Under the pieces are notes generated by a model. The model worked only from the letters and a program-made list of their open reading frames with translations. It searched no databases and was not told the origin of the DNA. Below are positions 33,316 through 64,000 of a DNA stretch of 64,000 nt, piece by piece (the first letter of the stretch is position 1; each line of letters starts with the position of its first letter). Made by a program: the position numbers and the translations under genes. The stretch is from an uncultured Alphaproteobacteria bacterium. GTDB lineage: Bacteria > Pseudomonadota > Alphaproteobacteria > RF32 > CAG-239. Location of the stretch: the NCBI GenBank assembly GCA_944393215.1, contig CALXZL010000006.1:1-64000 (forward strand), in the 5' to 3' direction.

Positions 33316-34281
33316 TTAAGATAAATCGGGAAATAAGCTCATGCCTTTGCGCATACGCGTCATTTGCGTTTCAATGGATGTTGCCAAATTAAGATTTCCG
33401 GTCTTAATAATGCCTCGAACCTGATCACCTTTGGTGGTATCAGGATTAGCAAACAAGTAGTTAATCAAGGGACGTTTTTCTTCCACGCCAACCAAAGTTT
33501 GATGCAAAACACCAAGTATACCGCGAGAAAAGAGGTCATAAGCCAAATCTTCACTCATAGAGGTTGAAGAAGCATATTTCACAACAGAATTGATGGCATC
33601 TGTAATATTATTAGCATGAATACTTGAAAGAACCAAATGTCCGGAAGTAGCGGCACGCAAAACTTGGCTTGCGGTTTCGGGGGTTCTGATTTCTCCCACA
33701 AGAATAAATCTTGGTTTAGAACGAAGAGCCGATTTTAAAGAATCTCCCCAATTATCATTAAAAGGCTGCGTTTGTTTACACAAACCCAAACCACCCTTCA
33801 TCGATTTATAAATTCCGTCAAGAGGCATTTCGGAAGGATCTTCAATCGTATAAGCAAATCCGCCTTCCATAGTCAAATATTCTTTAAGCAAAGCGGAAAT
33901 AGCCGTTGTTTTACCGGCGCCGGTCGGACCGGACCAAAGAATTAAGCCACAGGCATTGCTAAGGGAAAGAAGATGTCTGGTCAGCTCCCGTGGAAAATTG
34001 AGTGCGGCAATCGGCGGAACTTTTTCAGGCATTTTTCTGCAACAATATTGCACTCCGTAAATGGTAACGGAACGCTCAATACGATAAAAAATATTTTCAT
34101 AAAGAACGGAATAGCTCGGATTATCTCCATCCCAAGTTTCTTCTAACAGGGTATAAAACACATCCATATCTTCAGGCTTAATAATAGCCAATCCGTTTTC
34201 GGTTCGCCCATCAGGCACAAAAAAAGTTTTTTCGGGGGTAATATAAAGATCGGAAAAGCGAATAGTATTGAGTTTAACCAT
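33316..34281 (-). CDS. PilT/DotB-like secretion ATPase of the pilus locus
   Basis: A 321-residue hexameric ATPase of the PilT/VirB11/DotB superfamily. Walker A is LWSGPTGAGKTTAISALL near residues 115-132; the Asp box is TIEDPSEMP; Walker B is PRFILVGEIRTPETAS; the His box is HLVLSSIHANNIT. It is the second ATPase of the pilus cluster and could power pilus retraction like PilT, or a secretion step like DotB/TraJ. It lies beyond the terminator of the prepilin gene, so it is probably expressed separately or by readthrough. R64-type loci usually encode a different protein called PilT (a transglycosylase), so no gene symbol is given. Confidence 0.85.
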   Translation of the reverse strand: MVKLNTIRFSDLYITPEKTFFVPDGRTENGLAIIKPEDMDVFYTLLEETWDGDNPSYSVLYENIFYRIERSVTIYGVQYCCRKMPEKVPPIAALNFPRELTRHLLSLSNACGLILWSGPTGAGKTTAISALLKEYLTMEGGFAYTIEDPSEMPLDGIYKSMKGGLGLCKQTQPFNDNWGDSLKSALRSKPRFILVGEIRTPETASQVLRAATSGHLVLSSIHANNITDAINSVVKYASSTSMSEDLAYDLFSRGILGVLHQTLVGVEEKRPLINYLFANPDTTKGDQVRGIIKTGNLNLATSIETQMTRMRKGMSLFPDLS

Positions 34282-34370
34282 TATAAAATTTCCAAATAAA
34301 AAAGTAAATCTATGGAATCAATCATAAAAAAATTCGGTAAAAAAAGAGTAAATCATAAAAAAATGCCAAC

Positions 34371-34403
34371 AAAAAAGCTCTGATTTTATCATCAGAGCTT
34401 TTT
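34371..34403 (-). terminator. Terminator after the prepilin gene
   Basis: GCTCTGA (34377-34383) pairs with TCAGAGC (34392-34398), extended by A-run and T-run. It ends the minus-strand pilus transcript after the prepilin gene and before the PilT-like ATPase gene. Confidence 0.9.
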
Positions 34404-34418
34404 GACAAACTTAGGAAA

Positions 34419-34970
34419 TTAATAGTATTCCCAAGTAATGGAGTTAGCCGAATCCGTTTGATCACAATCTTTAACGGCAACAGTAGCTCTGATAGGTAAG
34501 TCAGACTGATCATAATCGGAATCATTAATAAGCATGCTGACCAAACCTTCAGTACCCCAGTCAGAAGAAGCCAAACTGGTGCAAGTTTCACGTCCCAGAC
34601 CGGCAAAAGTGATTGTAAAATGCTGAGCATTGTTTGTAGCTTCGGAAATGGTAACGGCACCGGAAAAAGCATTAACAATCTTGCCATCAGTTGCCGCCAA
34701 ACCGCTCGGCAACATATCTGCCGGAACAATATTTAACATAACGGCGGTAGAATTGCTCAATTCCTTATAGCTTGATGAACCGGAAAAAGCCGTACGAATA
34801 TTAATCAACAACATAGATAATTGATCTTGAGCTTTAGTCAATTTATATTTAGCCATAGCTTTTGAATATCCGGAAATACCACCAACGGACAAAACGCCGA
34901 TAATTGCAAGCACGCCAAGCATTTCTACCATTGAACGACCGGATTGTTCTATTTTATTTAATATTTTCAT
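34419..34970 (-). CDS. pilS: Type IVb prepilin (PilS-like)
   Basis: A 183-residue prepilin, the likely major pilus subunit. A short leader, MKILNKIEQSG, ends at a prepilin peptidase site, SG|RSMVEMLGVLAIIGVL, with the critical Glu at mature +5 and a long hydrophobic helix. The C-terminal domain contains a Cys pair (RETCTSL and VKDCDQT) consistent with the D-region disulfide of type IVb pilins. ATG 34970 has GGAGGGA just upstream; a GTG at 34982 is within this site and is rejected. No prepilin peptidase gene (pilU/pilD) is in the window. Confidence 0.9.
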   Translation of the reverse strand: MKILNKIEQSGRSMVEMLGVLAIIGVLSVGGISGYSKAMAKYKLTKAQDQLSMLLINIRTAFSGSSSYKELSNSTAVMLNIVPADMLPSGLAATDGKIVNAFSGAVTISEATNNAQHFTITFAGLGRETCTSLASSDWGTEGLVSMLINDSDYDQSDLPIRATVAVKDCDQTDSANSITWEYY

Positions 34971-35063
34971 GTATCCCTCCACAAATCAGTATTTTGATCA
35001 TATAATAATTATATAAGATTAAAAAAATATAAACAAGATTGGCAATAGATATATAACTTTAGT

Positions 35064-35624
35064 CTATAAGTAGATATTCCAAAGCAAATCATTATTTTCT
35101 TTACAAGCCTTCTGCGCATTTTGTTTATTTATCGGAAGCGAATTTGCGCTTCCCCAAGAAAACAAAAGAGTTGTATCATTAATAATACTGACAGAATCAA
35201 TAGAAAGCATTGTTTTTTCAGAAAAAGGATATGTTGCCAATTCAACGCACTCATCATAATTAAGATTTTTATAAACGATGGCAAAAGTAGGGCTTCCGGG
35301 CATAACGGTATTTCCAAGCACATCAGCTCCCAACAGAACATCCTTATTCAAACTGTTTCTGATTTGTCTGCCATTTAACATGTTGGAAGGAATAATATGA
35401 TTTATAATGGAAGAATAAGTGTTTAATCCCCAAGCGTTAGGTTTATTTTTATAAAAATTTCGCACTTGATTAATAAGTAAATTGACTTGCTCTCCGGCAA
35501 GTGTGATTTTAGAATCTGTTTTAATCAAACAAAATACGCCCCAAGCCAGAACTAAGATAGCAAGGGAAGCAAAAGCATAAACTTTATGTTTTTGCAAAGA
35601 AGAAAGTATATTTTTGATATACAT
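35064..35624 (-). CDS. Pilin-like protein with an uncleaved membrane anchor
   Basis: A 186-residue protein with an N-terminal transmembrane helix, VYAFASLAILVLAWGVFCLI (about residues 14-33), then a PilS-like globular part: LLINQVRNFYKNKP, IINHIIPSNMLNG and FAIVYKNLNYDECVELATYP, which echo the neighbouring prepilin (LLINIRTAF, NIVPADMLPSG, FTITFAGLGRETCTSLA). There is no G|xxxxE prepilin peptidase motif, so it should stay anchored and not be polymerised normally. It may cap, prime or regulate the pilus. It sits between the prepilin and PilR genes. The start at 35624 is chosen because upstream in-frame codons lie inside pilR. Confidence 0.72.
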   Translation of the reverse strand: MYIKNILSSLQKHKVYAFASLAILVLAWGVFCLIKTDSKITLAGEQVNLLINQVRNFYKNKPNAWGLNTYSSIINHIIPSNMLNGRQIRNSLNKDVLLGADVLGNTVMPGSPTFAIVYKNLNYDECVELATYPFSEKTMLSIDSVSIINDTTLLFSWGSANSLPINKQNAQKACKENNDLLWNIYL

Positions 35625-35632
35625 TTTTACGA

Positions 35633-36763
35633 CTACGCTCCCATTTGATTGGTAATTTGATCTTGCATGGCAAAAGTCCCCATAACCGCCCAAGCAATAA
35701 CACCGGCAACAGCCAAGATGGCAACCATGTTTAACAAAGATGCTTTTTGTTCAATTAAGTAGACGGATTCGTCAAGCCACTCATTGGCTAAAGATTCCAA
35801 GGCTTCTTCAAAATTATCCAATTCGGAATAAATTTTTAAGTCGGCAATAATTTCACGGTCAGGGAAATCTAATTTAGTTTTCTGCAGAGCAACCCCGAGG
35901 TTATCACCGTTATTAATAAAGACGAGCGTTTTATCAATACGTTCTTTAAGATAGCGCGTAGCGTCACGACGAAGTGCGCGCAAAGCCGTAGAGACCGGGG
36001 TTCCGCCTTTTACCAAAGCAGAAAGAGCCAATAGCCAACTGATGCCGACAAAAACCTTATATAAAGAATACGGCGGCATATTGTCAATCATGGCTCTGAT
36101 TCTGCCTGTCCAAATGCTAATGGTAGAATAAATAATAAGCATGATAACCGGCAAAGCACTAAACGCTACAAGCCAATATTCCTTAATCCACCCGGATAAA
36201 TCAACCAAGTCGCGCGCCATTCCGGTCCATCGGGTATCCGGAGCGGCATCAAGCATGGGTGGCACCATATAAACACCGATACCGTAAATAATCAAAACTG
36301 CCATCATAAACAAAAATGATGGATAAGCGATAGCGCCTATAATCGGGCGCACCATTTTGGTAGAACCTTCGGTCACGCGAATAAGGTTTATCAAAGCACC
36401 TTCCAAGTCGGAAACGTCACCGACGGAGAGCATCAAACGTTCACGGTCGGGAGCCCAGCCTTTAAGCGCATCAGAGAATGGAAGACCGTTGTTTAGGGCT
36501 CTTGCCCAGCAAGCAATGGCAATAGCCATAGGTTCGCCCGGATTTTTTCCTCCGTTACTGACACTATCATGTAACATATCCAAGGCGCTCATTAAAGAGA
36601 AGCGGTTTTTCATCAAGGATGCAATTTTACGATATATTTTTAATCTGGCATCATTAGAAAAATTACAAATCATCTTGGCATAATATTCTTCCACAACGTT
36701 CAACTGACGCATTGCTTTGTGAATAGAATTTGATGTACTTTTCTTTTCGTTTTCTTCTGCCAT
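35633..36763 (-). CDS. pilR: Type IVb pilus inner-membrane platform protein (PilR/GspF family)
   Basis: A 376-residue platform protein of the GspF/PilC family, which couples the cytoplasmic ATPase to pilin insertion. It has two GspF-type helical repeats: the first around RKIASLMKNRFSLMSALDML and VGDVSDLEGALINL, the second around LSALVKGGTPVSTALRALRR and LKIYSELDNFEEALESLANE. Hydrophobic segments are at IGAIAYPSFLFMMAVLIIYG, EYWLVAFSALPVIMLIIYST and ILAVAGVIAWAVMGTF. The order PilQ-PilR-PilS matches the R64/TCP type. It starts 16 bp after pilQ. Confidence 0.9.
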   Translation of the reverse strand: MAEENEKKSTSNSIHKAMRQLNVVEEYYAKMICNFSNDARLKIYRKIASLMKNRFSLMSALDMLHDSVSNGGKNPGEPMAIAIACWARALNNGLPFSDALKGWAPDRERLMLSVGDVSDLEGALINLIRVTEGSTKMVRPIIGAIAYPSFLFMMAVLIIYGIGVYMVPPMLDAAPDTRWTGMARDLVDLSGWIKEYWLVAFSALPVIMLIIYSTISIWTGRIRAMIDNMPPYSLYKVFVGISWLLALSALVKGGTPVSTALRALRRDATRYLKERIDKTLVFINNGDNLGVALQKTKLDFPDREIIADLKIYSELDNFEEALESLANEWLDESVYLIEQKASLLNMVAILAVAGVIAWAVMGTFAMQDQITNQMGA

Positions 36764-38471: not shown

Positions 38472-39935
38472 CTAACGAATTGTCATTTCCGAAGCCACAC
38501 TAGGTATTCCGGTAGTCATAACGGCAGGAGCAACAGCCTTTTTCTCTTCTTCCGGAGATGAAACTTTAATCTTCAGTTCTTCATTTTGCTCGGGCTCTTT
38601 ATCCAATACGCCGCCGGCTGAAAAGTATAAATAACTTTTAACGCCTTCTTTGTCGGCACGCACATAAGTAGATGAAATTTCATCAATAATATGTCCGCTT
38701 TGTAAAGCAGTGCCAACCTTAACCATAAAAGGAATACCGCTTTCATTAATTAATTTTGCAGCGATTTTGTTCCCTTGCCCTCTGATTTCCATAACAGCAT
38801 ACAGATCACTAAGCTTTGCATTTTTTTCTTCAGCATCTTCTGCAGCATTGGAATTTTCTGCAAAAGGATTTTTCCGATCATTTGCTTCCAAACGGGCATT
38901 AAGGATAGAAATTTGTGTTTGCAAATCAGAAACGGTTTTAGCATAACTGTCACGAACACGAATAGCATCACTGGTAACTTGATCGGCAATTTTGGTTAAT
39001 TGCAAAAAACGACCTTTGAAATCATTGATTAAAGCTTCTCTTTCTTCTTTTAATTTTGCAATTTCTTGAAACATCTCTTCACGAGCAGTAATCATATCTT
39101 GAGATTGCTCCAACATTTTATTTTTATAGTTTTTCAAAATTTTTTCTTGCCGTTCTTGTTCATATGCAATTTCCAAATTTTTTAATTTTTGCTGTTCTTG
39201 CAAAAGCTTACGCTTTTCTTCATTTTCCCAAGCCTGAGCTTTGCGTTTTTTCTCTTCTTGGCGAGCTTTTTCTTCTTCTTTAGCCTTTTCTTGAACAGCT
39301 TTCAGCGATTCAATATCGCTTTTAACCCTCTCTTTTTTGAGCTCCAAATTCAAGATTGCTGTTTGCTTTTCCAAATCTGACATCTGGTTGAAAATAGAAT
39401 CATCAACATCAGAAACAAGCTGCATATCAATACCTTGAGGCGATTTCAACACTGTGGCAGGAGAAGGTTGAGATGTCGCGGATTGTACTTTATTATCCTT
39501 TTTGTCATTTAAAGCCTGAGCCGAAGCCTCTGGAGCTTTTTCGTCTTTTTTAGAATTTTTATTTCCGAGCAATTCAGCGGCAGATTTAACATTTCCTTTA
39601 GCTGCAGATTTTCTTGCCGCCAACAATTCTTTGGCAGATTTAACTCCGGAACTGGGTTTAGCTTGGGGTTGTTGTGCTTTTTTGTTCTTTTTTCCTAATA
39701 TTTCGGCAGCAGATTTCACACCGGTAGTAGATTTTGCCGGAGTAATTACTTTTACATCAGCACTATCATCTCCGAACAATGAAATTTCATCAGGAATTTC
39801 ATTTGCATTATCATCAGCCTTAGCGCTGTCGCTTAAACTGACAACACCTTGAGCAGAGCACACATGAACAAAGCCTAAACTCAAAATCAAAGCCAAGGCT
39901 GACGTGCCCAATATTTTTTTCATATTATAATGCAT
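38472..39935 (-). CDS. pilP: PilP-like pilus protein with long repeat and coiled-coil extension
   Basis: A 487-residue exported protein. The signal peptide is KKILGTSALALILSLGFVHV, ending CSA|QG. Residues about 70-130 contain three copies of a G/N-VKSAxELL motif (GVKSAAEILGKKNK, GVKSAKELLAARK, NVKSAAELLGNKNS). Residues about 190-330 form a charged coiled coil (KEEEKARQEEKKRKAQAWEN and on). The last 150 residues match PilP: VMEIRGQGNKIAAKLINESG and PFMVKVGTALQSGHIIDEIS. PilP of R64 type is only about 150 residues, so 300 residues are added. GAGGGAG 5 bp before ATG 39935 supports that start, overlapping pilO by 11 bp. Confidence 0.82.
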   Translation of the reverse strand: MHYNMKKILGTSALALILSLGFVHVCSAQGVVSLSDSAKADDNANEIPDEISLFGDDSADVKVITPAKSTTGVKSAAEILGKKNKKAQQPQAKPSSGVKSAKELLAARKSAAKGNVKSAAELLGNKNSKKDEKAPEASAQALNDKKDNKVQSATSQPSPATVLKSPQGIDMQLVSDVDDSIFNQMSDLEKQTAILNLELKKERVKSDIESLKAVQEKAKEEEKARQEEKKRKAQAWENEEKRKLLQEQQKLKNLEIAYEQERQEKILKNYKNKMLEQSQDMITAREEMFQEIAKLKEEREALINDFKGRFLQLTKIADQVTSDAIRVRDSYAKTVSDLQTQISILNARLEANDRKNPFAENSNAAEDAEEKNAKLSDLYAVMEIRGQGNKIAAKLINESGIPFMVKVGTALQSGHIIDEISSTYVRADKEGVKSYLYFSAGGVLDKEPEQNEELKIKVSSPEEEKKAVAPAVMTTGIPSVASEMTIR

Positions 39936-41202
39936 AAATTGCTCCCTCATAAGTCCAATCACTACCGTTATAATTAATTACTTTAATATCAAGTCCTGAA
40001 AATTTTGTTAATAAACTGCTCCAAACCAAAGGATTATAAGTTGAAGTAAAACTAAATCCAATATATCGATAAGTATAGCGTTCATCTTCACTTATCGCTT
40101 GAGAAAACGATCCATTATTAAGAGTTATAGTCCCGCCAATACTTTGAAATAAATTATTCAAGGTTTCTCTCAATTTGGGAATGCTCAGCGTTGGAGGAGA
40201 TGAGATAACCTCTATTTTAGGATAATTGATTCCGGCAGCCACACTATTACCGTCATTAGCAAAATTAGCGTAAGAAACCTTAAATTTGGTCTTATCTAAA
40301 GCCATTTTCATCCAAGACATCCGACCAAAAGTTCTGGTCCAAGAAGTTGTTACCCCGTTTTGGGAGCAAGAAAACGTTCCGATATCCCATCCCGGAGGTA
40401 AAATGCTCTTAAATTGACGAATACCTAAAACGCAAGAAGACATAATCTGAGAAGGATTCTTTAGTTTTTCCCAAGGCTTTATTACCGGCGCACGCTCAAC
40501 TTTTTTCACAACCTTAGGCTGGACGGGAACAACAACAGGTCTTTCGACGGGAGTAAACAACAAGGCGTCAATCAAGCTGGAGAGCAACCACAATCCGACA
40601 ACGACGGAAATTCCGACGACCATCAATAACTTAGCGCCGCGTAATCCTTTAATCTTTTGGAGTTTTGCCGTTGTACCGCGTTGCAAAATATGTTCGAGCT
40701 GAATATTTTCAACATCTTCAATATTCCAACTTTCGGGAGCAATTTTCCGTCCCCAATCAGGCACTGCCAACATGGAGGTAAATTGGTTCCTGGCATCTTC
40801 CTCGTTTAAGAAAAGCATATCACCGTCAGAAAGAATAATATCATTTCTGACGCAGGTATACCACCATCCTTCAGGGACTTTAAATACGGCAATAAATGAA
40901 GAGCGGTCAGCCAAAGCCGTTGCTAAAGAAACGGCAGCGGCAACGGTACCGCCTTTATATCCTTCTTGAGAAACGCAAATACCAAACTGAGGCGCTTTTC
41001 CGGGCTTGATACAGTACAAATCGGCTCCTTCCAAAATACCTTCGGAGGCTTCGATAATCTCTGTAATAGGCTCTTCCTGATTTTGTAGAGGCTGCCAAAA
41101 CAGGCTGGTCGCATAAGTCTGACCGGAAACGGTTATATGCGTGCCCCATGTCCGAGCTACGTCATCGGCATTATTATCAGAAATATTTGTGTTATCAAGC
41201 AC
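39925..41202 (-). CDS. pilO: Type IVb pilus assembly protein PilO
   Basis: A 425-residue PilO-type protein (R64 pilus accessory, bitopic). The N-terminal cytoplasmic half has GADLYCIKPGKAPQFGICVS and SSFIAVFKVPEGWWYTCVRN, both family-typical (WYxxVRxGxI). A single transmembrane helix, AKLLMVVGISVVVGLWLLSS, sits near residue 195. The periplasmic half has LKNPSQIMSSCVLGIRQF and LPPGWDIGTFSC with a conserved Cys pair. It starts 14 bp after pilN. Confidence 0.88.
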   Translation of the reverse strand: MLDNTNISDNNADDVARTWGTHITVSGQTYATSLFWQPLQNQEEPITEIIEASEGILEGADLYCIKPGKAPQFGICVSQEGYKGGTVAAAVSLATALADRSSFIAVFKVPEGWWYTCVRNDIILSDGDMLFLNEEDARNQFTSMLAVPDWGRKIAPESWNIEDVENIQLEHILQRGTTAKLQKIKGLRGAKLLMVVGISVVVGLWLLSSLIDALLFTPVERPVVVPVQPKVVKKVERAPVIKPWEKLKNPSQIMSSCVLGIRQFKSILPPGWDIGTFSCSQNGVTTSWTRTFGRMSWMKMALDKTKFKVSYANFANDGNSVAAGINYPKIEVISSPPTLSIPKLRETLNNLFQSIGGTITLNNGSFSQAISEDERYTYRYIGFSFTSTYNPLVWSSLLTKFSGLDIKVINYNGSDWTYEGAIYAL

Positions 41203-43487: not shown

Positions 43488-43575
43488 TTTTAAGGTTCCC
43501 AAGCAATATTTTGTCATAATTTTTTACCTATCATACATACGGAAAAATAAATAATCAAGCGCAAGCAACAACTTA

Positions 43576-53798: not shown

Positions 53799-54524
53799 AT
53801 GAAGACCTCCTTTAAAATAGTATTAATGATTATATTTACCGGAAGTTTAACGATTTCTTCCGCACATGCCTTTTTTCCGATACCAGTTCCGCTAATCGGA
53901 ACCGATATAGCAAATAATGCTGCCGATTTAGTCGAAAATTTAAATGCCATTGGGGAACAGGTTGAACAAGTAGAAGCGACAATCCAGAAAACAATAGAAG
54001 AAGTAAAATCGGGTAGTTTTGGTTTTGATGCGATCAAAAGTTATACCGAGACATTAAAAAAGATAGATGTATCGAGATTGATTCCCAAAACCCAAGCTCC
54101 ATCAAAATTAGCAGAAAATATAAATGATCCGGATAAAGCCTCAGCGGCGGTAGAAGAGGTATATTTGAGCAGTTTTTCCGAAGAAGGCAATCATATGGAA
54201 CAAGCAAAGAAAAACCGCCAAAAACAGATAGAATTATTACAAATGAACGTTTCTGCAATGTATGCACATGCCTTGGCAACGCGCGTCAATTTAGCGCAGG
54301 AAAGAGAATTACCGGAAACAACACTGGAAAGTGAAAACACGCGAGAAATAATACAAGGTAATCGAGCCATGGCAGAAAAGATAGTCAAAAGGTTAAATGA
54401 TATTGTCTTTATGGAATCACAAATTAATGAATATAAAGCAACACAAATAATGACAAAGATTACTTTAGATTCGCAAACGGCGGCAGAAAGACAAGCCTCC
54501 TCAACGCAAGGAGATAATCAATGA
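53799..54524 (+). CDS. VirB5-like exported T4SS protein
   Basis: A 241-residue protein with a VirB5-like layout. The signal peptide SFKIVLMIIFTGSLTISSAHA is followed by FFPIPVPLIGTDIANNAADL. Long helices come next: VENLNAIGEQVEQVEATIQK, MEQAKKNRQKQIELLQMNVS and VFMESQINEYKATQIMTKIT. VirB5 proteins begin with such a GIPVxD-like segment, then paired helices, and end with a Gln/Ala-rich helix; they are minor pilus-tip components. The similarity is in pattern, not strong identity. It is coupled to the next gene by ATGA. Confidence 0.55.
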   Translation: MKTSFKIVLMIIFTGSLTISSAHAFFPIPVPLIGTDIANNAADLVENLNAIGEQVEQVEATIQKTIEEVKSGSFGFDAIKSYTETLKKIDVSRLIPKTQAPSKLAENINDPDKASAAVEEVYLSSFSEEGNHMEQAKKNRQKQIELLQMNVSAMYAHALATRVNLAQERELPETTLESENTREIIQGNRAMAEKIVKRLNDIVFMESQINEYKATQIMTKITLDSQTAAERQASSTQGDNQ

Positions 54525-55693: not shown

Positions 55694-56355
55694 TGAAAAA
55701 AATATATATAAAAATAATTATCTTCTTTGGCTTAATCATATCATTGGGTATTATTTCTCATCCCAAAGACGCCGTAGCCTTTATTGATCCGGGAAGTTTA
55801 ACGACGCAAGTACCGAATACGGTAGCATCCGTTGCCAATAAAGTGACAACATATGCCAATAAAGCCATAAAAATGACCTTACAGGCATACAAATCGATAG
55901 AAGATTTCTTTAAGAATTTATTCAGCCGTAAAAAGACTAAAATACCGGGTACCAAGAAAATAAAGAAGAGTAAAGTCGCCGATATAACGGATGAGGAGTC
56001 AATAAGAAACGCCTTTCCAAAGTTATTTTTCCGTTATCCGTCCAATGAGCCGGATGATCAGCTTGGTTACAAGCATGAAGGGCAAGAGTTTTTTGAAGAT
56101 ACAATGATAGAAGCCTTCACGGCAGTAAGAGAATTAGAAAAAAAGCTGACGGAAATTGACACGCAAATAGTAGAAGCGGAAGAAAAATATACACAAGCAG
56201 ATGATTTAAATGGCGGATTATATAATAAATATATGATATCAGCCACAACGGATCAGATTTTAATAATTATACAAGAACTTGTAGCCATAAAGTCACAGAT
56301 GACGGCGGCATATGCGGTTCACGGAGAAGTCGAACCGTTGTATATAGAAGAATAA
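55693..56355 (+). CDS. Exported protein of the T4SS block
   Basis: A 220-residue exported protein of unknown family. Signal peptide IKIIIFFGLIISLGIISHPK precedes DAVAFIDPGS. The mature N-terminus TTQVPNTVASVANKVTTYAN is followed by a basic linker FSRKKTKIPGTKKIKKSKV, then ITDEESIRNAFPKLFFRYPS and a helical end. It may act near VirB4 or VirB8 in the periplasm, but no motif proves this. AAAGGAGG precedes the start, which overlaps the previous stop. Confidence 0.65.
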   Translation: MKKIYIKIIIFFGLIISLGIISHPKDAVAFIDPGSLTTQVPNTVASVANKVTTYANKAIKMTLQAYKSIEDFFKNLFSRKKTKIPGTKKIKKSKVADITDEESIRNAFPKLFFRYPSNEPDDQLGYKHEGQEFFEDTMIEAFTAVRELEKKLTEIDTQIVEAEEKYTQADDLNGGLYNKYMISATTDQILIIIQELVAIKSQMTAAYAVHGEVEPLYIEE

Positions 56356-56376
56356 ATATTATTTGGGAGAATGATC

Positions 56377-59300
56377 ATGAAGGAGCTTAAAAGGATAAAA
56401 GTTATACAACAAGCCATCAGTTTGTTTATAGCCGGTTTTTTTGCCTGCGGAGCATCAGCACAAGAGAGTTATTCTCCTTTTTACAGCGGCGCCGAAAACA
56501 GCAAGACATCTGCGCAACAAAGCACGTCAAGTGCCCCCAAAATGAGCAGTATTCTAAACATAGAAGACTCTCAGCCGACACAAGAGACGCACCCGTTTTC
56601 CGGTTCAGAAGAAACAATGGAGGAGTTAGATAAGTTAGAGCCCATTAATACAAATTTAAAAGCAGCGGTAGATGCGCATAATTTGATAAACAGATTGAGA
56701 GGTTATAAGAATATTCAGAAACAATACAATAACATGGTAAAATTACATGATCGCTCAGTCGAATTATTACAAAATTCGGAACAATGCACCATAGATTATA
56801 TGAGCAGATATTTTAAAGATCCGATAAAAGTTTGGTCGGGACGAGACATGAGTGCCACTCCGCAAAATCATGATCTGAGACAAGGTCTTTCCGCATGGGC
56901 GGTAGCAATGTTTGAAACAGCAAAATCGGCAGAGGTATCTCCGATAGATATAGATGATGTAGTCAGCGTAGATTTACAAACAAAAGATACGGTAGATGAA
57001 GACGGTAATGTTTTGGAAGTAGAGTCAACAATCAACAGCAGTACCAGCACGGTTGGTATTGAAGTTGCGGAAATGGGAGAAGAAAATAATCTTGAAACCA
57101 TAGGAGCCCAAAGTACAAAACAAGTTGAGAATTTAGATGCCCAAACCGGAGGGGTATACTTCAAAGAGCCCAGCCGACAAGAAGAATTAGAAGCCGAAGA
57201 TCGAAAAACCGATTTAATGACCAAAGATATAGGTGCCGAAGTTGCTATATGGATGGCAGATTATTTAGCCGGCTATACAACAAGTCAAGGTCCGGAGTGG
57301 AACGGAGGAGATTTGGGCGGAGTCAAACAAAGATTTCCGGTATGGACGGATCAGAAAACATTTTATGGTCAATATTTGATAAGAAAATACAAACATATAA
57401 AGCAGTATATAAAAGATTACAGAGTTCCGGAAGACGTAAGAAAAAGAATAGCGGATAAGGTTTTTGAACGTCAGGAAGAATATATGGATGAAGCGGAAAA
57501 ACAAATAACACAGGCAGCTGTTAATGCCCGTTTGACGGCGCTTGGAATTTATAATCAAGAGACGGCACAAACGCAAAAGAAATATGAAGAAACATCCACA
57601 ACAATCGAAGAAGAGCGAGATAAAACAACAAAACAACTCGACAAAGAATTAAAAGAAACTGTAGCGGTATATAACGCAGAGCAAGCGGAAGGAAACCAAA
57701 AACGCGATCAATATATGGAGCAAATAAGCGACATAAATACGGAAAACAGCAACTTATCACAAGAAATAAATGAATTAAAACAAGAAGTGAGCAATTATGA
57801 TACCTTGTTGGCGGACAGTGAGTTGACGGAAGAACAACGGACCGAATATGAAGAATTAAAAGCCGGGGTTCAAACCGAAATCAGCAATACGGAAGCCAAA
57901 ATACAAAGTCAAATTTCCGAAAGAGATAATTTACAAAAATTATATGATGAACAAACGGCATATGTCGCCCAAAAGCAACAAGAAAAGGCAGATTTTGAAA
58001 GTGATATTCAAACGAAAAAAGGTCAGGTCAATGATAAAGCGGCATATGAACAACAGGTTGCCTTAAATGAATATAATGCAAAGATAGCAAAGATAGAAAA
58101 AGAATATAAGGAAAAAATAGAAAGGATAGATGCCGCTGAAGTAGCCGCTAAAGCGACAATAGGAAGCAAGTCCATGGTAACGGCACAACAAATTATCGGA
58201 CAAACGGATTTGATAATAGAAGATGCCAAGCAGATTGCCTATGACAATACGGATAAGACTTTAGCGGCATTGAGAGCGCTGGGGGATGATTTGTATAGAG
58301 GACAAGCTCAAGCAACCATAGCATCATACCATCAGGCATTAATAGATACATTAAAAGGAAAAGAGGCTAATGTTGCCGGATTGGGATTAGAAGCAGCCGA
58401 TGCAAAAGTCAGAGATATAACCAATTTTAACGTAGACATAGTCATCAGCTCTTACATGGATGCGCAAATGCGAGAAATGTATTTAAGTAATTATCGCAAT
58501 TCCGTGCATAATACCACAATATTGCTGAGAATTCCGCTGTTTGATAAAATGCTGGAAGGCGTTTACACGGGAGTAGACAGTCAATATTTTGTAGGCTTGC
58601 ATCCGAAGGAGGGAGATTTTGCAGCCCCCAAAGCATTGCCTGATTATAATCTTCCGCCTTTAAGAGAATATGTAAGATTGGATTATATAGATTTGCAAAA
58701 TATAGGAAAAGACACGCCTAAAATGGAAGTAGGTAGATATAAGACCATAACGCTTCCGCTGGGAGGAACCAGGCGAGTATGGGAGAAGACGGAAAGCTTG
58801 CCGATTTCAATCATAGATAAAGAAAAATTCTTATCTTATGGAGGCAAGATACCGGAAATCTGGAAATTAATGTTGAAAGATAAAGCTTTTGTAGATAGCG
58901 AGTTTTATTTGACGGCAGATATGGATACGGAACCGGACGGAACCACACCGACGGAATATAATCCGTTGCAACTCGGTGCAGAAATGTCAACATTATACCG
59001 AGGAGGAGTATATCCTTGCGTATTAAAAAATATCAAAAGTGATAAAGGAACATGTACGGCATCCGGAGTAATTGATAACGGAACCGGGGTGGTAGATGTT
59101 GCCATAATAGATAAGGGCAAGACCAATTCTAATGAATATTTCATGAGCTTAAGTTTTGTTAAGGGAGAGAGACGGACACAATTATTGTCACAAGGTTTGC
59201 CGACCTGCCAAGAAGTATCAGCCAAATGCAAAACCAGGATAGGCATAACGGAAAATGGTATCGGGATAGTATCATCACCTTATTTAACCTTATTAAATAA

Positions 59301-60060
59301 GGACGATGAAAGCGGAAATACATCAACTTCATTTGTAACGGAAGGTGAGTCGAGCGAATTAGGTAGTATAATAAATGTCTATAGCGGAAAAATGTTATCA
59401 GACGGAAGCTATGTTCAGAGAGCCTTTGGCTATAGTCCGTACATGCAATCGGTAGTTAATTACGGAATACGTATGGAAGAACGTGGACAACAAGATGATG
59501 CGGAAAAATTAAATGCCGCGGAGCAACAAAATGATGACATATATGTCCGAGCTCAATATAATAACAATCAGGTTGGAGATTTTCTGGATCACGTTGAACT
59601 TGAACAAAATTATCAACAAGCTCTGGATGAGCTAGAAGAACAGGTCAAAGAAACCAAAGAAGAACTATATAGTAGTTTAAAAGAATTTGGCTTTGAACCG
59701 AGTGCAGATTTTGATATATCGAAAACAGAAGATTATGATTTAGCGGTTAAACAGTTAAAAACAGCGAAGGAAAACTATATGAACACAGCCAAAGGGGGAA
59801 TAGATAGCATTGAACCCGGAGATTCGGAAGTATTGTCAGATAGTAAAAATTCGTATCAGAGAATATATCAAGGTTTGCTGTTAGATAATGAAGCCGTTGT
59901 ATCGATGACGATGGATGTAGATAATTTATCGGACTTTTCTGAGCAAATTAAAACGGCAACAACCAATAATACGGTAGGAGATGAATATGAGAAAAATGCC
60001 GATGAGGACTTTGAAGAAACTTTAAGGTCAATGAAACCGGCATATTGTGCGGCATATTAG
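56377..60060 (+). CDS. Very large exported coiled-coil protein of the T4SS block
   Basis: A 1,227-residue exported protein, not recognised. Signal peptide IKVIQQAISLFIAGFFACG ends at ASA|QESY. Residues about 75-360 include a helical domain with RDMSATPQNHDLRQGLSAWA and an aromatic, Trp-containing region (IWMADYLAGYTTSQGPEWNG). Residues about 365-600 form a long coiled coil (LKQEVSNYDTLLADSELTEE, IQSQISERDNLQKLYDEQTA). Residues about 600-1010 look globular, with ITNFNVDIVISSYMDAQMRE and DYNLPPLREYVRLDYIDLQN, three or four Cys (YPCVLK, GTCTAS, LPTCQE, AKCKTR). The end is helical. ATG 56377 has GGGAGA 6 bp upstream. It is probably an envelope or surface part of the T4SS; this is inference from operon position. 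Confidence 0.72.
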   Translation: MKELKRIKVIQQAISLFIAGFFACGASAQESYSPFYSGAENSKTSAQQSTSSAPKMSSILNIEDSQPTQETHPFSGSEETMEELDKLEPINTNLKAAVDAHNLINRLRGYKNIQKQYNNMVKLHDRSVELLQNSEQCTIDYMSRYFKDPIKVWSGRDMSATPQNHDLRQGLSAWAVAMFETAKSAEVSPIDIDDVVSVDLQTKDTVDEDGNVLEVESTINSSTSTVGIEVAEMGEENNLETIGAQSTKQVENLDAQTGGVYFKEPSRQEELEAEDRKTDLMTKDIGAEVAIWMADYLAGYTTSQGPEWNGGDLGGVKQRFPVWTDQKTFYGQYLIRKYKHIKQYIKDYRVPEDVRKRIADKVFERQEEYMDEAEKQITQAAVNARLTALGIYNQETAQTQKKYEETSTTIEEERDKTTKQLDKELKETVAVYNAEQAEGNQKRDQYMEQISDINTENSNLSQEINELKQEVSNYDTLLADSELTEEQRTEYEELKAGVQTEISNTEAKIQSQISERDNLQKLYDEQTAYVAQKQQEKADFESDIQTKKGQVNDKAAYEQQVALNEYNAKIAKIEKEYKEKIERIDAAEVAAKATIGSKSMVTAQQIIGQTDLIIEDAKQIAYDNTDKTLAALRALGDDLYRGQAQATIASYHQALIDTLKGKEANVAGLGLEAADAKVRDITNFNVDIVISSYMDAQMREMYLSNYRNSVHNTTILLRIPLFDKMLEGVYTGVDSQYFVGLHPKEGDFAAPKALPDYNLPPLREYVRLDYIDLQNIGKDTPKMEVGRYKTITLPLGGTRRVWEKTESLPISIIDKEKFLSYGGKIPEIWKLMLKDKAFVDSEFYLTADMDTEPDGTTPTEYNPLQLGAEMSTLYRGGVYPCVLKNIKSDKGTCTASGVIDNGTGVVDVAIIDKGKTNSNEYFMSLSFVKGERRTQLLSQGLPTCQEVSAKCKTRIGITENGIGIVSSPYLTLLNKDDESGNTSTSFVTEGESSELGSIINVYSGKMLSDGSYVQRAFGYSPYMQSVVNYGIRMEERGQQDDAEKLNAAEQQNDDIYVRAQYNNNQVGDFLDHVELEQNYQQALDELEEQVKETKEELYSSLKEFGFEPSADFDISKTEDYDLAVKQLKTAKENYMNTAKGGIDSIEPGDSEVLSDSKNSYQRIYQGLLLDNEAVVSMTMDVDNLSDFSEQIKTATTNNTVGDEYEKNADEDFEETLRSMKPAYCAAY

Positions 60061-60080: not shown

Positions 60081-60839
60081 ATGAATGAAATAAATTCTCT
60101 GGGGCAAGGAACAAAAATCTTGTCCATAACGGACAAGAATAAAGATGCACATGTCAATTTTCTGAGCAAAGAAGAAAATGAAAAATTATCATTTAAGCTG
60201 GTATATTACATGTGGTTGTCGAGATTGTTCATTTTTTTCAGTACCATATCCCTTCTGGTATTTTTAAGCTCAAGTTTATCTTTATTTCGTCTGGCGCCGT
60301 TGGTGGAGGTAGAACCCTTTTTAATTATTCGACAAGATAATTCGGACAATTTAGTGAGATCAGAACCCATTTCCAATAATATGGCGTCCAAAGATTTATT
60401 ATTGGAAACATTTATCAAACAATATGTAATTTTACGCAATACTGTCATTAGTGATGAAGCAGAAATGAGTAGCCGCTGGCTTCCCGGCGGGATGATAAAT
60501 TTCTTGTCGTCCTGGCCTGTATTTTACCAATTCCGCGACAGCACCTCCAAAATGATGGAAAAGAAGGAATATTATACATTTGTCAGAGAAGTCGAGATTA
60601 TTTCCATTGGAAGGCAAGGCGGTAAAAAGAGTGAAGTTTGGAAGGTGGATTTTAAAACTTATGACTTAAGACCGGGCAATTCAAATACCGGAGGAGCATT
60701 GATAATGAAGGAAAGATATTGGACGGCATCGGTCACCGCAAGATTTTATCCGGAAAGAGTATTTATGGGAAGAAGATTAATCAATCCGATTGGTTTTACG
60801 GTTGTTAGGTATTCACAATCAGAAGTAGAAATATTCTAA
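60081..60839 (+). CDS. virB8: VirB8-like T4SS protein, copy 1
   Basis: A 252-residue bitopic VirB8. One N-terminal transmembrane helix, LFIFFSTISLLVFLSSSLSL, lies at about residues 50-70. The periplasmic domain has the VirB8 opening FRLAPLVEVEPFLIIRQDNS, TFIKQYVILRNTVISDE, and the end YWTASVTARFYP then RRLINPIGFTVVRYS, matching the VirB8 NPxGFxV motif. VirB8 scaffolds the inner-membrane complex. A second copy lies at 61183-61920, with a VirB7-like lipoprotein between them. Confidence 0.87.
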   Translation: MNEINSLGQGTKILSITDKNKDAHVNFLSKEENEKLSFKLVYYMWLSRLFIFFSTISLLVFLSSSLSLFRLAPLVEVEPFLIIRQDNSDNLVRSEPISNNMASKDLLLETFIKQYVILRNTVISDEAEMSSRWLPGGMINFLSSWPVFYQFRDSTSKMMEKKEYYTFVREVEIISIGRQGGKKSEVWKVDFKTYDLRPGNSNTGGALIMKERYWTASVTARFYPERVFMGRRLINPIGFTVVRYSQSEVEIF

Positions 60840-61182: not shown

Positions 61183-61920
61183 ATGGTAGAAAGTCTTCAG
61201 GGAAATAACAATGTCGAACAAAGACTAATCGGAAGCAACCAGCCTCGTAGAGCTCCGCAGGCGCAGAGACCGAGGACGGAGAACGTTTTTGTGGCAAATT
61301 TGGCAGAAAAAAGATATTTGTGGACAGCCAGAGCCTTTGCCATAGTTACGGCGATCAGTATATGTTGCAATATAGTTTTAATTTTGGCAATTTTCCAAGT
61401 TATGCCGCTTTTTCGCGTTGAACCCTTTTTGCTCTCGTTTCAAGATAAGGACGAGCAAGTGTTTAATATTGTTCCGCTAAAAAATTTAGAGGATGAAAAA
61501 GCCGTTACCGAAATTTTTGTAAGACAATATGTCTTGTTACGTAGTTCGTTTACATCCAATATTCCGGAAATGGAAGCGCGCTGGATGCCCGGCGGACCGA
61601 TACAGGAAATGTCCTCTCCTGCCGTATATGAAGACTTTCAAAAAAGAACGGCAGTTAAAGCGTTGAGTATAATTAGAAGCAAAGGTTTAACGCGCGCCGT
61701 AAAGATTATATCCGTCAACGAGCTAACAAGAGGATTATGGCAGGTCGAATATGAAACAAGAGATATGTTCCCTGACTCCAGCAAGCCTCAAGTTAATTAC
61801 TGGACAGCTTCATTGAGAATTACCTATAGAGGAAAAACAGTAAAATCGGGAGAGAGATTGAAAAATCCGGTTGGTTTTACGGTAGACAGATATTCATTAA
61901 CCTATAACAAAGTACAATAG
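61183..61920 (+). CDS. VirB8-like T4SS protein, copy 2
   Basis: A 245-residue VirB8 paralogue. The N-terminal ~40 residues are basic and disordered, then FAIVTAISICCNIVLILAIF is the transmembrane helix. The periplasmic domain has MPLFRVEPFLLSFQDKDEQV, IFVRQYVLLRSSFTSNIPEM, RWMPGGPIQEMSS and the ending YWTASLRITYR then ERLKNPVGFTVDRYSL, closely paralleling copy 1. Two VirB8 copies are also known in Rickettsiales T4SSs. This suggests an ancient or adaptive duplication within the secretion locus. It follows the VirB7-like gene by 18 bp. Confidence 0.85.
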   Translation: MVESLQGNNNVEQRLIGSNQPRRAPQAQRPRTENVFVANLAEKRYLWTARAFAIVTAISICCNIVLILAIFQVMPLFRVEPFLLSFQDKDEQVFNIVPLKNLEDEKAVTEIFVRQYVLLRSSFTSNIPEMEARWMPGGPIQEMSSPAVYEDFQKRTAVKALSIIRSKGLTRAVKIISVNELTRGLWQVEYETRDMFPDSSKPQVNYWTASLRITYRGKTVKSGERLKNPVGFTVDRYSLTYNKVQ

Positions 61921-61935
61921 TATAAAAAAGATGGA

Positions 61936-63663
61936 ATGGTGCAAAATATGCTTCACAGAATAAAAATATTTTTTCTCGGATTGTTGGTGCTGACACAAGC
62001 AGGCATAACACATGCCCAAGAAAACAGTCTGGACCAGAGTGCAGACCAAGATCAAGGACAGTATCGTTCCATGGATATGAGTTATGCCGGTTTTGGCTCA
62101 ATCGGTATGATGCAAAGTGCCTGGCTGGATCCCTTGCAAAATTTAGGCGAAGGTCAAACCAAACCGGCATATTCAAAATATTATTGGTCTCCAGATTTGG
62201 TTTTGCCGGTTCGTCTGCGAGAGGGCATGATTACAATGATAAATTTCCCCGATTGGGAAATGGTTGAAGATGTTTATATTGGTGATAATTCAACATTTGA
62301 CGGTCAAATATCCGGACCGAGCACAGTATTGTTGTATCCGAAAAAAGGAGCCAATGTCGGTGTTGATACCAACGTTATCATTTTTGGACGCTCGGGTAAT
62401 CGCTATGTATTTTATGTAAGAAGTGAGGGCGTGAATACCGAGCGTTTGACAAACTCCATTATAGATATAGATGTCATAGGAGCGGAAAGCCCGAGTGGTT
62501 CATCGATAGGAGGTTTTGGAAGTAGTGTGTCGAACGGAGGTAAAGGAGCATCGGGTTATGGTAATAGCAACCCTAAATCTGTAGCGTCAACATACACACG
62601 CCGCAATCAAAAGGATGATTGGCTGAAATCAATACCCGTAGATCCTGAAAAATTTCGCTTTGATATAGAGGTTTATGTCCCCAATCCGGAAGATGTTGTG
62701 ATTGCACCGGAGAGAGTATGGCGGGATGACATATTCACATACATAGATTTGGGAAACAAAGCCATAAATATGACACAGCGCCCGATAGTAACTTTAATAA
62801 ATGAAAAAGTGGAAACGCCGGTTGGCTTTCGTTCTAAAGGACCGAATAACCGATTGATTGTGGTTGAAGCTGTCGGAGATATGGTCTTGAGAAACGGAAA
62901 GCGTATAGTTTGTTTAAAACTGAGACGCTCAGATGCAGCCGGTTTGGAATATGGTGTCTATGCAGATGATGCAGCTCCGGGTTGGGATGTCCCGCCTCCG
63001 CTTAAAAACGGAGATTTGGAAACGGCATTTAGTCCGCAAGCAACGCAAAGCGGAGGAAAAGGCGTATCACCTTATAATATGTCGGGTAGCAATATGCAAG
63101 GAGCAGGAGAAAACGGACAATATATTTATCCGCAATATGGTGTAAATAACGGAACAATGTCGAACATGCTCATCGGAACCGGCGGTGTAAATTCGGGAAC
63201 CGGAATGATGATGATGAACGGAAGTTCCGGTGCCGGGATGATGATGGGCGGAAATATGGGGGTAACGCCGCATCAGGGAGCCGTAGCCGGAGCTTATGAT
63301 TATACAAAAATGCAGAGACTGCCCAATCAAACAATAGCCAACCAAACCAACGGCAATAGCAAATATTTGCAGCAGTTTGGATATGGGAGCGGTTTTGATG
63401 CCAACACCAATATATCAATAGAATTGGGTACGGATGCAGATGTCAGTAAGTTAGAAACGCTTTGGGACGGTTTGAGCCGTAAATATAAATCAGATTTGTC
63501 CGGATATGAACCGTTTTACTCGGTAGATACTCCGGCAGACGGACAAGGAAAAGAACTATTCCATTTAAGAGTAGGTCCGGTAAAAAGTCTGGAAGAAGGA
63601 GATGCTGTATGCTCAAAGCTTGGAAGAAATGGAATATTTTGTAGTGTAGTCAGAACCCAATGA
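61936..63663 (+). CDS. virB9: VirB9 T4SS core protein with a C-terminal SPOR domain
   Basis: A 575-residue protein. The signal peptide is KIFFLGLLVLTQAGITHAQ. The VirB9/CagX N-domain includes LVLPVRLREGMITMINFPDW, VGVDTNVIIFGRSGNRYVFY; a Gly/Ser-rich linker follows (SSIGGFGSSVSNGGKGASGY); the CagX C-domain includes VWRDDIFTYIDLGNKAINMT and NNRLIVVEAVGDMVLRNGKR. A Met/Gly-rich linker (residues about 395-475) then leads to a C-terminal SPOR-like domain at about residues 495-575: IELGTDADVSKLETLWDGLS, LFHLRVGPVKSLEEGDAVC, LGRNGIFCSVV. VirB9 is usually about 290 residues, so the extension is unusual. Confidence 0.85.
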   Translation: MVQNMLHRIKIFFLGLLVLTQAGITHAQENSLDQSADQDQGQYRSMDMSYAGFGSIGMMQSAWLDPLQNLGEGQTKPAYSKYYWSPDLVLPVRLREGMITMINFPDWEMVEDVYIGDNSTFDGQISGPSTVLLYPKKGANVGVDTNVIIFGRSGNRYVFYVRSEGVNTERLTNSIIDIDVIGAESPSGSSIGGFGSSVSNGGKGASGYGNSNPKSVASTYTRRNQKDDWLKSIPVDPEKFRFDIEVYVPNPEDVVIAPERVWRDDIFTYIDLGNKAINMTQRPIVTLINEKVETPVGFRSKGPNNRLIVVEAVGDMVLRNGKRIVCLKLRRSDAAGLEYGVYADDAAPGWDVPPPLKNGDLETAFSPQATQSGGKGVSPYNMSGSNMQGAGENGQYIYPQYGVNNGTMSNMLIGTGGVNSGTGMMMMNGSSGAGMMMGGNMGVTPHQGAVAGAYDYTKMQRLPNQTIANQTNGNSKYLQQFGYGSGFDANTNISIELGTDADVSKLETLWDGLSRKYKSDLSGYEPFYSVDTPADGQGKELFHLRVGPVKSLEEGDAVCSKLGRNGIFCSVVRTQ

Positions 63664-64000
63664 TGGAAAATAACAAAGAAGAACAAGCTCCGCTGACACA
63701 TTCGGAGAATTATGTAAAAAAAACCAACCGCATAATATTAATTGTCGGTATATCTTCGCTTATTATTTTTTTATTGGGTGTAATGCTTCTGATTTCAGAA
63801 GATAACAACACATATGAGTATGAAGAACCCTCATTTACGGATAATGATGATGCCATCAATATCGGAGAAACAAACCCTCTGCTGGATAATAGTATCGAAT
63901 TTCAAACCATAGAAGATATAGGCACGCCGATAACCACAACACCTAATCCGGTGCCCATGGGGCAGGTTGTCCTTGGTACGGATGCTCAAAATGTTTTAAC
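63660..64000 (+). CDS. virB10: VirB10 (5' part, cut by the window edge)
   Basis: The first 113 codons of a VirB10-like protein are present and open to the end of the window. A short cytoplasmic N-terminus (MMENNKEEQAPLTHSENYV) is followed by one transmembrane helix, IILIVGISSLIIFLLGVMLL, then an acidic, Pro- and Asn-containing periplasmic linker, as in VirB10. The start overlaps the virB9 stop (ATGATG). The C-terminal TrbI domain lies outside the window, so the call rests on position after virB9 and on topology. Confidence 0.72.
   Translation, partial: MMENNKEEQAPLTHSENYVKKTNRIILIVGISSLIIFLLGVMLLISEDNNTYEYEEPSFTDNDDAINIGETNPLLDNSIEFQTIEDIGTPITTTPNPVPMGQVVLGTDAQNVL

What the first reader, a model, noticed from the sequence alone, without database searches (positions are those of the whole stretch)
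33316..64000. Complete type IVb pilus locus back-to-back with an elaborated VirB secretion system
The minus-strand genes 33316-45372 form an R64/TCP-type pilus set (PilL, PilN, PilO, PilP, PilQ, PilR, prepilin, PilT-like ATPase). The plus-strand genes 45674-64000 form a VirB set (VirB2 x3, VirB3, VirB4, VirB5-like, VirB8 x2, VirB7-like, VirB9, VirB10). They diverge from one ~300-bp intergenic region. In IncI-type plasmids such a thin pilus accompanies a Dot/Icm-like (type IVB) transfer system. Here the partner is a VirB-type system in an apparent chromosome. This combination may be a contact-dependent delivery or DNA-transfer machine not yet described for this lineage.
Basis: partly seen in the sequence, partly recalled or inferred. 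Interest (0 to 1): 0.92.

Follow-up and report, generated by a model that had tools for sequence, protein, structure and literature searches.

The report
Pilus-linked secretion machine, two-piece VirB10
A group of uncultured, apparently gut-dwelling bacteria carries, side by side, a grappling pilus and a secretion machine whose membrane-spanning tube protein is split into two separately made halves; it probably grips another cell and injects proteins into it.

Summary
A type IVb pilus operon (33316-45372, minus) and a VirB operon (from 45674, plus) diverge from a 301-bp gap. The contig (93,118 bp) goes on to supply VirB10, VirB11 and four VirB6-like genes; VirD4 and a prepilin peptidase lie on other contigs. 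Misassembly is excluded: of 124 genomes of the order with both marker genes (PilN, VirB4), 91 have them on one contig, always within 22.3 kb (88 divergent, 3 tandem). The pilus operon lies beside VirB2 in four further alphaproteobacterial families too. Pilus plus VirB is not new in itself (IncI2 plasmid R721 is typed MPF_T and has pil genes); a lineage-wide chromosomal version without three common relaxase families is. The oddest feature lies past the window: VirB10 is two genes, an inner-membrane-anchored half and a signal-peptide-bearing half, both full of beta-flower repeats, in 12 of 12 genomes read from this family (8 genera); one genome of another family has a single 2,838-residue frame. 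Best reading: a pilus-guided protein injector; substrate and target are unknown. Against me: 18 of 19 genomes lacking both markers keep VirD4, so their joint absence may be assembly dropout, not co-loss.

The parts
33316..34281 (-). second pilus ATPase, PilT/DotB-like, 321 aa
   Evidence: Pfam T2SSE 98.8 bits; best solved relatives are PilT, DotB also matches
34419..34982 (-). type IVb major prepilin; leader ends SG, mature start R-S-M-V-E (read by eye)
   Evidence: Pfam PilS 49.6 and Bundlin 39.7 bits, both over cut-off
35064..35693 (-). minor-pilin-like protein
   Evidence: Pfam Bundlin 22.2 bits, just under its cut-off of 22.3
35633..36763 (-). PilR-like inner-membrane platform (T2SSF)
   Evidence: Pfam 86.5 bits
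36779..38470 (-). PilQ-like assembly ATPase
   Evidence: Pfam T2SSE 223.1 bits
38472..39962 (-). PilP-like coiled-coil protein
   Evidence: position; NCBIfam pilP_fam 17.8 bits, under its cut-off of 34.65
39925..41202 (-). PilO
   Evidence: Pfam PAP_PilO 50.7 bits
41216..42922 (-). PilN secretin
   Evidence: Pfam Secretin 55.5 bits; NCBIfam TIGR02520 264.5 bits against a cut-off of 287.65
42822..43517 (-). PilL/TcpQ protein
   Evidence: Pfam TcpQ 61.2 bits
43576..45372 (-). first gene of the pilus operon, called PilX here, no family hit
   Evidence: no Pfam match in the longer frame, no NCBIfam match; relatives at the same place in 24 of 40 loci
45373..45673 (.). divergent intergenic region; conserved element at 45378-45424 before the pilus operon
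   Evidence: alignment of 6 loci and scan of 40 loci
45674..46021 (+). VirB2 pilin 1
   Evidence: Pfam TrbC 46.4 bits
46057..46473 (+). VirB2 pilin 2
   Evidence: Pfam TrbC 34.9 bits
46495..48825 (+). VirB2-like protein with long C-terminal extension, 776 aa
   Evidence: Pfam TrbC 36.4 bits in residues 6-85
48993..49283 (+). VirB3 candidate
   Evidence: position and size; no Pfam or NCBIfam hit; conserved before VirB4
49273..51705 (+). VirB4 ATPase
   Evidence: Pfam CagE_TrbE_VirB 37.4 bits; NCBIfam TIGR00929 364.3 bits, under cut-off
51784..56355 (+). five coiled-coil-rich, fast-evolving proteins with signal-like N-termini; 53799-54524 is a VirB5 candidate
   Evidence: no family over its cut-off; low identity between genera; helical but low-confidence model
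56371..60060 (+). 1,229-aa core protein of unknown family
   Evidence: no Pfam family over its cut-off; relatives in 34 of 40 loci
60081..60839 (+). VirB8 copy 1
   Evidence: Pfam VirB8 44.3 bits
60973..61164 (+). VirB7-like lipoprotein, 63 aa
   Evidence: lipoprotein signal and position, read by eye; no Pfam hit; conserved
61183..61920 (+). VirB8 copy 2
   Evidence: Pfam VirB8 78.7 bits
61936..63663 (+). VirB9 with C-terminal SPOR domain
   Evidence: Pfam CagX 51.4 and SPOR 22.3 bits
63660..64000 (+). start of the inner-membrane half of VirB10 (gene runs to C6:67697); the signal-peptide half with the TrbI domain follows at C6:67701-72773

Best explanation
The locus is one chromosomal, pilus-assisted type IV secretion apparatus. 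The type IVb pilus captures another cell (inferred from plasmid R64 and TP114 biology). The VirB/VirD4 machine then moves proteins, not plasmid DNA, into it (inferred). Shown: both halves are near-complete and stay near each other across an order and in further families; VirD4, VirB11 and a prepilin peptidase are present; no relaxase of three families was found. Shown: VirB10 is encoded by two genes, one product with an inner-membrane helix, the other with a signal-peptide-like start and the TrbI domain, both built mostly of beta-flower repeats. Inferred: the two halves meet in the periplasm through these repeats and form a long shaft, as DotG and CagY do in one chain.
For: Composition. VirD4 on another contig; 145 of 154 genomes of the order have a match to it, two of them (G077, G132) only a weak one. 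Prepilin peptidase in 7 of 7 genus members. PilN in 128 and VirB4 in 131 of 154 genomes; both in 124, on one contig in 91, always within 22.3 kb, 88 divergent and 3 tandem. Contrast: VirD4 and VirB4 share a contig in 9 genomes by my reading, always 72-174 kb apart (6 computed). VirB2 and PilX are divergent and adjacent in four other families. VirB4 of the pilus-bearing genomes falls in one clade, 100/100. PilN and VirB4 distances track each other, r = 0.88, n = 20. No PF03432, PF08751 or PF03389 in 7 of 7 genomes. Split VirB10 in 12 of 12.
Against: No substrate, effector signal or target cell was identified. Other relaxase families and any oriT were not searched. Eighteen of the 19 genomes lacking PilN and VirB4 keep VirD4, so joint absence may be MAG dropout and says little about functional coupling. 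Linkage and congruent distances also follow from plain vertical inheritance; no housekeeping-gene control was run. In six of 40 loci other genes sit between the halves. No experiment exists.
Confidence: 0.58

Rival explanations
1. A domesticated or cryptic conjugation system: DNA is still moved, by a relaxase type not searched here, and the pilus stabilises mating pairs as proposed for IncI2 plasmid TP114.
For: The three top-ranked plasmid relatives of VirB4 (Microvirga, Erythrobacter, Sphingosinicella) sit in clusters with a MobA/MobL relaxase and VirD4 and join the clade's stem at 90/87 with long branches. In TP114 such a pilus serves conjugation in the gut (passages).
Against: MobA_MobL, Relaxase and TrwC families absent in 7 of 7 genus genomes. 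VirD4 is far from the rest. VirB4 is in 131 of 154 genomes of the order.
Confidence: 0.2
2. A DNA-uptake machine: the pilus collects DNA and a ComB-like T4SS brings it across the outer membrane.
For: The TrbI domain's best solved relative is ComB10, and the ComB10 and VirB10 models score equally (109.6 bits each).
Against: A VirD4 coupling ATPase and a VirB11 point to export; as I recall, ComB systems work without them. Both model scores are far under their cut-offs.
Confidence: 0.06
3. Two independent machines that merely share a neighbourhood and a divergent promoter region: a pilus for attachment and a T4SS with another job.
For: Other genes sit between the halves in six of 40 loci. A few genomes hold only one marker (4 PilN only; 7 VirB4 only, one of them, G132, by a 24-bit fragment). 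No shared protein was found.
Against: Nearness persists through reorientation (3 tandem cases) and in other families, while VirD4 of the same machine is not kept nearby.
Confidence: 0.14

Closest known systems
IncI2 plasmids R721 (typed MPF_T, MOBP) and TP114
   Same: A type IVb pilus operon on the same replicon as a T4SS; R721 typing and pil genes seen; in TP114 the pilus is needed for transfer in the gut (PMC7508951, passages)
   Different: Plasmid-borne and, for R721, with a relaxase and PilV; the present locus lacks the three relaxase families searched, has a distant VirD4, split VirB10 and four VirB6-like genes. I did not see TP114's MPF type or R721's virB genes themselves
Pil operon of E. 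coli plasmid p786605_3 (CP091397); also pYR4 of Yersinia ruckeri (PMC6232867, abstract and outline only)
   Same: p786605_3 has the same order TcpQ, secretin, PilO2, ATPase, T2SSF, second ATPase; pYR4 is reported to hold both pil and tra operons
   Different: Plasmids of enterobacteria; p786605_3 is typed mobilizable only
Helicobacter Cag T4SS (CagY) and Legionella Dot/Icm (DotG)
   Same: VirB10 homologue with a very large repeat region (PMC6520456 and PMC6362355, passages)
   Different: Those are single chains; here two genes, and the repeats match the beta-flower families PF21785 and PF21784
Rickettsiales rvh T4SS
   Same: Two VirB8, several large VirB6-like proteins, scattered gene blocks (rvh features partly recalled; VirB4 duplication: PMC9352585, passages)
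   Different: One VirB4 match in this genome, linked type IVb pilus, split VirB10
MobA/MobL-associated T4SS on plasmids of Microvirga sp. VF16, Erythrobacter aureus, Sphingosinicella sp. BN140058
   Same: Top-ranked plasmid VirB4 matches (35-38% identity) and a similar VirB2-to-VirB11 order
   Different: Have a relaxase, adjacent VirD4, VirB10 of about 530-590 aa, and no pilus operon annotated or matched in the 42 kb viewed

Membership tests
type IVb pilus, R64/TCP/Bfp kind | TcpQ/PilL, PilN secretin, PilO, assembly ATPase, platform protein and PilS prepilin in one operon | tested here: met
   Pfam over cut-off for each; PilN just under its NCBIfam cut-off
type IVb pilus, R64/TCP/Bfp kind | prepilin peptidase in the genome | tested here: met
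   PF01478 in 7 of 7 genus genomes, on contig C1 in G000
R64-type thin pilus | PilV tip adhesin with shufflon | tested here: inconclusive
   not recognised among the operon's genes; not searched genome-wide
VirB/VirD4 (MPF_T-like) T4SS | VirB2, 4, 6, 8, 9, 10, 11 and VirD4 | tested here: met
   of the genes sent to NCBIfam (VirB4, 8, 9, 10, 11, VirD4) none reaches a T4SS cut-off, so it is divergent
VirB/VirD4 (MPF_T-like) T4SS | VirB3, VirB5, VirB7 | tested here: inconclusive
   no hit over a cut-off; candidates by position only; the VirB5 candidate's model has mean pLDDT 55.3
VirB/VirD4 (MPF_T-like) T4SS | VirB10 as one polypeptide | tested here: not met
   two genes in 12 of 12 family genomes in which both could be read; one frame in G214 of another family
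conjugative system | relaxase | tested here: not met
   PF03432, PF08751, PF03389 absent in 7 of 7 genomes; other MOB families not searched
conjugative system | origin of transfer | not tested
   no search made
Rickettsiales rvh T4SS | duplicated VirB4 | tested here: not met
   one VirB4 match in G000
ComB DNA uptake | no VirD4 coupling protein (recalled) | tested here: not met
   VirD4 in G000 and a match in 145 of 154 genomes
protein-delivering T4SS | translocated effectors | not testable with these tools
   needs experiment

The most novel reading that the evidence does not exclude
A whole family of uncultured, apparently gut-dwelling alphaproteobacteria carries a chromosomal pilus-guided injector in which VirB10, elsewhere one chain joining both membranes, is made as two separately exported proteins that rejoin in the periplasm through beta-flower repeats. 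This would show that the covalent inner-to-outer membrane link, which I recall as central to T4SS gating models, is dispensable.
Probability: 0.4. Interest if true: 0.82.

Novelty: new variant of a known kind. Interest (0 to 1): 0.66.

Why it matters
The locus is in most genomes of this uncultured order (VirB4 in 131 of 154), so it is likely central to how these bacteria live, and it gives a testable account (pilus capture, then injection) of their contacts with other cells. The two-gene VirB10 is a natural experiment on whether a T4SS needs one continuous protein from inner to outer membrane. It also ties the beta-flower fold, described in 2023 with no tested function in the passages I saw (PMC10584680), to a secretion shaft.

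Tried and rejected
Rejected: misassembly (the join recurs in many assemblies). Rejected as evidence: joint absence of the halves (Fisher p about 3e-15 in 110 good genomes), because VirD4 persists in 18 of the 19 genomes without both. Rejected: the lipoprotein-like protein at C6:74523-75788 as a secretin relative (hhalign probability 1.3%; no convincing PDB hit). Rejected: VirB10 fission as a sequencing error or frameshift, since the second gene opens with a signal-peptide-like stretch in 12 of 12 and the first gene keeps the same C-terminus in all 11 genomes where it was printed (that of G048 was not printed).

Led nowhere: folding of the VirB5 candidate (mean pLDDT 55.3, not searched further); folding of the C-terminal half of the 1,229-aa protein, never accepted by the busy machine; Rfam at gathering threshold on 30000-64000 (no hit); paper searches without a result; promoter scan (1 site against 1.9 in shuffles). 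No VirB10 match turned up in the stretches taken from six genomes of other families (G231, G265, G282, G381, G552, G560), so the fused state rests on G214 alone.

Not tested: other MOB families, oriT, effector signals, a housekeeping-gene control, and the order's name. RF32 is my guess: PMC8199421 (passage) reports RF32 genomes of 1.59 Mb among Alphaproteobacteria of ruminant guts, and some of my loci bear RGIG names, which I recall as that study's.
Full report
What is there. The window is bases 1-64000 of a 93,118-bp contig (C6) of a 1.72-Mb assembly in 27 contigs. The minus-strand genes 33316-45372 are a type IVb pilus operon; Pfam matches over cut-off are TcpQ, Secretin, PAP_PilO, T2SSE (two genes), T2SSF and PilS. 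The plus-strand genes from 45674 are a VirB operon: three VirB2, VirB4, two VirB8, VirB9 with a SPOR domain, then two giant VirB10 genes (C6:63660-67697 and 67701-72773) and VirB11 (C6:72788-73756). Farther on the minus strand come three genes of unknown family, a 1,024-aa acidic repeat protein, a double-HTH regulator and four VirB6-like genes. Two of the four reach the Pfam TrbL cut-off; the other two are called VirB6-like from their place, hydrophobic stretches read by eye and conserved position. VirD4 is on contig C8, with a weaker paralogue on C4. The prepilin peptidase is on C1.

Is the pairing real and old? Searching genomes of 84,980 species with VirB4 gave 40 loci, all from uncultured or MAG records; six of the 40 titles name a deer or sheep gut, the rest do not tell. 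Of 40, 24 have the TcpQ and PilX genes divergent beside VirB2. One (L025) has pilus genes upstream in tandem. Six have other genes, which by eye look like housekeeping genes, just upstream. Nine have no useful upstream DNA. All 40 of those genomes and the window's own encode PilN somewhere (41 of 41). In 154 genomes of the order (17 genera), PilN is in 128 and VirB4 in 131: both 124, PilN only 4, VirB4 only 7 (one, G132, by a 24-bit fragment), neither 19. Of the 124, 91 have both on one contig: 88 divergent (3.2-22.2 kb apart) and 3 tandem (6.5-15.2 kb); 33 are on different contigs. The six loci with other genes upstream are among the 88, at 13-22 kb, matched by identical PilN coordinates. By contrast VirD4 shares a contig with VirB4 in nine genomes by my reading, at 72-174 kb; six of these were computed (22 hand-picked assemblies), three (G145, G152, G167) I subtracted by hand.

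Beyond the order. In 385 genomes sampled from the class, 38 have PilN at E 1e-25 and 43 have VirB4 at E 1e-40; by hand count 24 have both. Of the 14 genomes outside the window's family with PilN over 350 bits, all 14 have VirB4 at 790 bits or more (G195 in two pieces of 707 and 615). The other way round, of 17 such VirB4 genomes 14 have that PilN, one has a weaker one (G472) and two none at that threshold (G282, G442). VirB2 and PilX lie divergent and adjacent in families f23, f40, f74 and f91; in G560 of f91 VirB4 itself is about 20 kb off. In G549 (f69) PilO, PilQ and PilR matches lie 9-13 kb from VirB4 on the same strand, while its PilN is elsewhere. A VirB4 tree of 43 rows puts the pilus-bearing genomes in one clade of 26 rows (100/100); that clade also holds G282 and G442 (no PilN match) and two genomes with weak PilN (G260, G379). 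MobA/MobL plasmid systems attach at its stem (90/87, long branches), and eight rows without a PilN match form a separate clade (100/99).

A result against my reading. Sixteen of 110 good genomes lack both halves (90 both, 2 and 2 with one). This looked like co-loss. But VirD4, unlinked, is there at full or near-full length in 18 of the 19 genomes without both (G151 alone lacks it). The simplest reading is that the repeat-rich locus failed to assemble or bin. I therefore do not count joint absence as evidence; linkage kept through reorientation and in other families is what remains. The PilN-VirB4 distance correlation (r = 0.88, n = 20; within-half values 0.76-0.89) shows common descent, without a housekeeping control.

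The split VirB10. The first gene encodes an inner-membrane helix and beta-flower repeats (PF21785, PF21784). The second has a candidate start (TTG, GTG or ATG) 2-5 bases after the first gene's stop in 11 of 11 genomes measured, then a signal-peptide-like stretch, more repeats and the TrbI domain. I took the region from other genomes with long contigs: in 12 of 12 genomes of the window's family in which both genes could be read (8 genera) they are separate, and in all 12 the second has the hydrophobic stretch. G144 of this family showed no VirB10 in the 40 kb taken, and G193 (second family of the order) ends inside the first gene. In G214 of family f23 VirB10 is one open frame of 2,838 residues. 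Fission in the window's lineage is thus the likelier direction, from one outgroup genome. Sizes are 1,345 and 1,690 residues here; in G048 the two frames span 2,521 and 1,504 codons. CagY and DotG carry large repeat regions in one chain (PMC6520456, PMC6362355; passages). A search for a split VirB10 (10 of 11 papers listed, titles and abstract starts seen) showed none described; a search joining beta-flower with type IV secretion found no paper. Both cover only the open-licence library.

DNA or protein? Relaxase families PF03432, PF08751 and PF03389 are absent in 7 of 7 genus genomes, while the three top-ranked plasmid relatives of VirB4 have a MobA/MobL gene in the cluster. With a conserved VirD4 this favours protein export. 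Effectors are not identified. One VirB6-like protein carries a VgrG3-like C-terminal domain (87.9 bits), recalled as a cell-wall-cutting domain; I recognised no VirB1. Among the other genomes taken, only G131 shows a trace of that domain.

How it compares. Pilus plus T4SS is known on plasmids: R721 is typed IncI2, MOBP, MPF_T and carries pil genes; TP114 needs its pilus for transfer in the gut (PMC7508951, passages); pYR4 is reported to hold pil and tra operons (PMC6232867, abstract). Among host-associated alphaproteobacteria, some gut-dwelling Hepatincolaceae are reported to have T4SS parts with a virD2 relaxase (PMC11724238, passages), one strain a reduced T4SS without a pilus (PMC9992710, passages), and basal Rickettsiales type 4 pili besides their T4SS (PMC9352585, PMC10847448, passages). 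None of the listings (titles and abstract starts) showed the present locus. What seems new is the chromosomal, order-wide presence, the missing relaxase families and the two-gene VirB10. I rate it a new variant of a known kind.

Regulation. The 301-bp gap has a conserved element at 45378-45424, just before the pilus operon. In five close relatives it differs at 1-2 of 47 positions, in 17 of 40 loci at 9 or fewer; in several others that have PilX (for example L031, L032, L039, L041) it is not recognisable. On the minus strand it reads TTGCCA-17-TATCTA, which could be a promoter; I did not test this, and the promoter scan found nothing beyond chance.

Noticed in passing
window 45378-45424: A 47-base element upstream of the pilus operon differs at 1-2 positions in five close relatives and at 9 or fewer in 17 of 40 loci; no second copy in the stretches of this genome held.
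   Followed up: partly
L003:16835-19951 (C6:80835-83951): A VirB6-like protein carries a VgrG3-like C-terminal domain (87.9 bits) in its N-terminal part; only a trace of it in one of the other genomes viewed.
   Followed up: partly
L050:9227-14795 (C4): A second, weaker VirD4-like protein sits next to a pentapeptide-repeat protein and a protein with a near-cut-off SPOR match; possibly a second coupling protein with a cargo.
   Followed up: no
L003:12508-15582 (C6:76508-79582): A 1,024-residue protein with acidic near-perfect tandem repeats and Lys runs; short matches to it lie near the T4SS in six other genomes.
   Followed up: no
window 56371-60060: A 1,229-residue protein with no family over cut-off is present in 34 of 40 relatives, so it is a core part of unknown role.
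   Followed up: partly
genomes G046, G054, G085 and others of the order: Eighteen of 19 genomes that seem to lack pilus and VirB4 keep VirD4, which suggests assembly or binning loss of the repeat-rich locus.
   Followed up: partly
L141-L143, L145-L148, L150 (G203, G212, G225, G311, G325, G336, G343, G514): A separate clade of VirB4 systems without a PilN match in other alphaproteobacteria with genomes of 1.3-2.0 Mb; G203 has VirD4 and VirB8-11 nearby.
   Followed up: partly
window 46495-48825: The third VirB2-like gene has a long extension after the pilin domain (776 residues in all); in a relative the same gene reaches 1,896 residues (L025).
   Followed up: no
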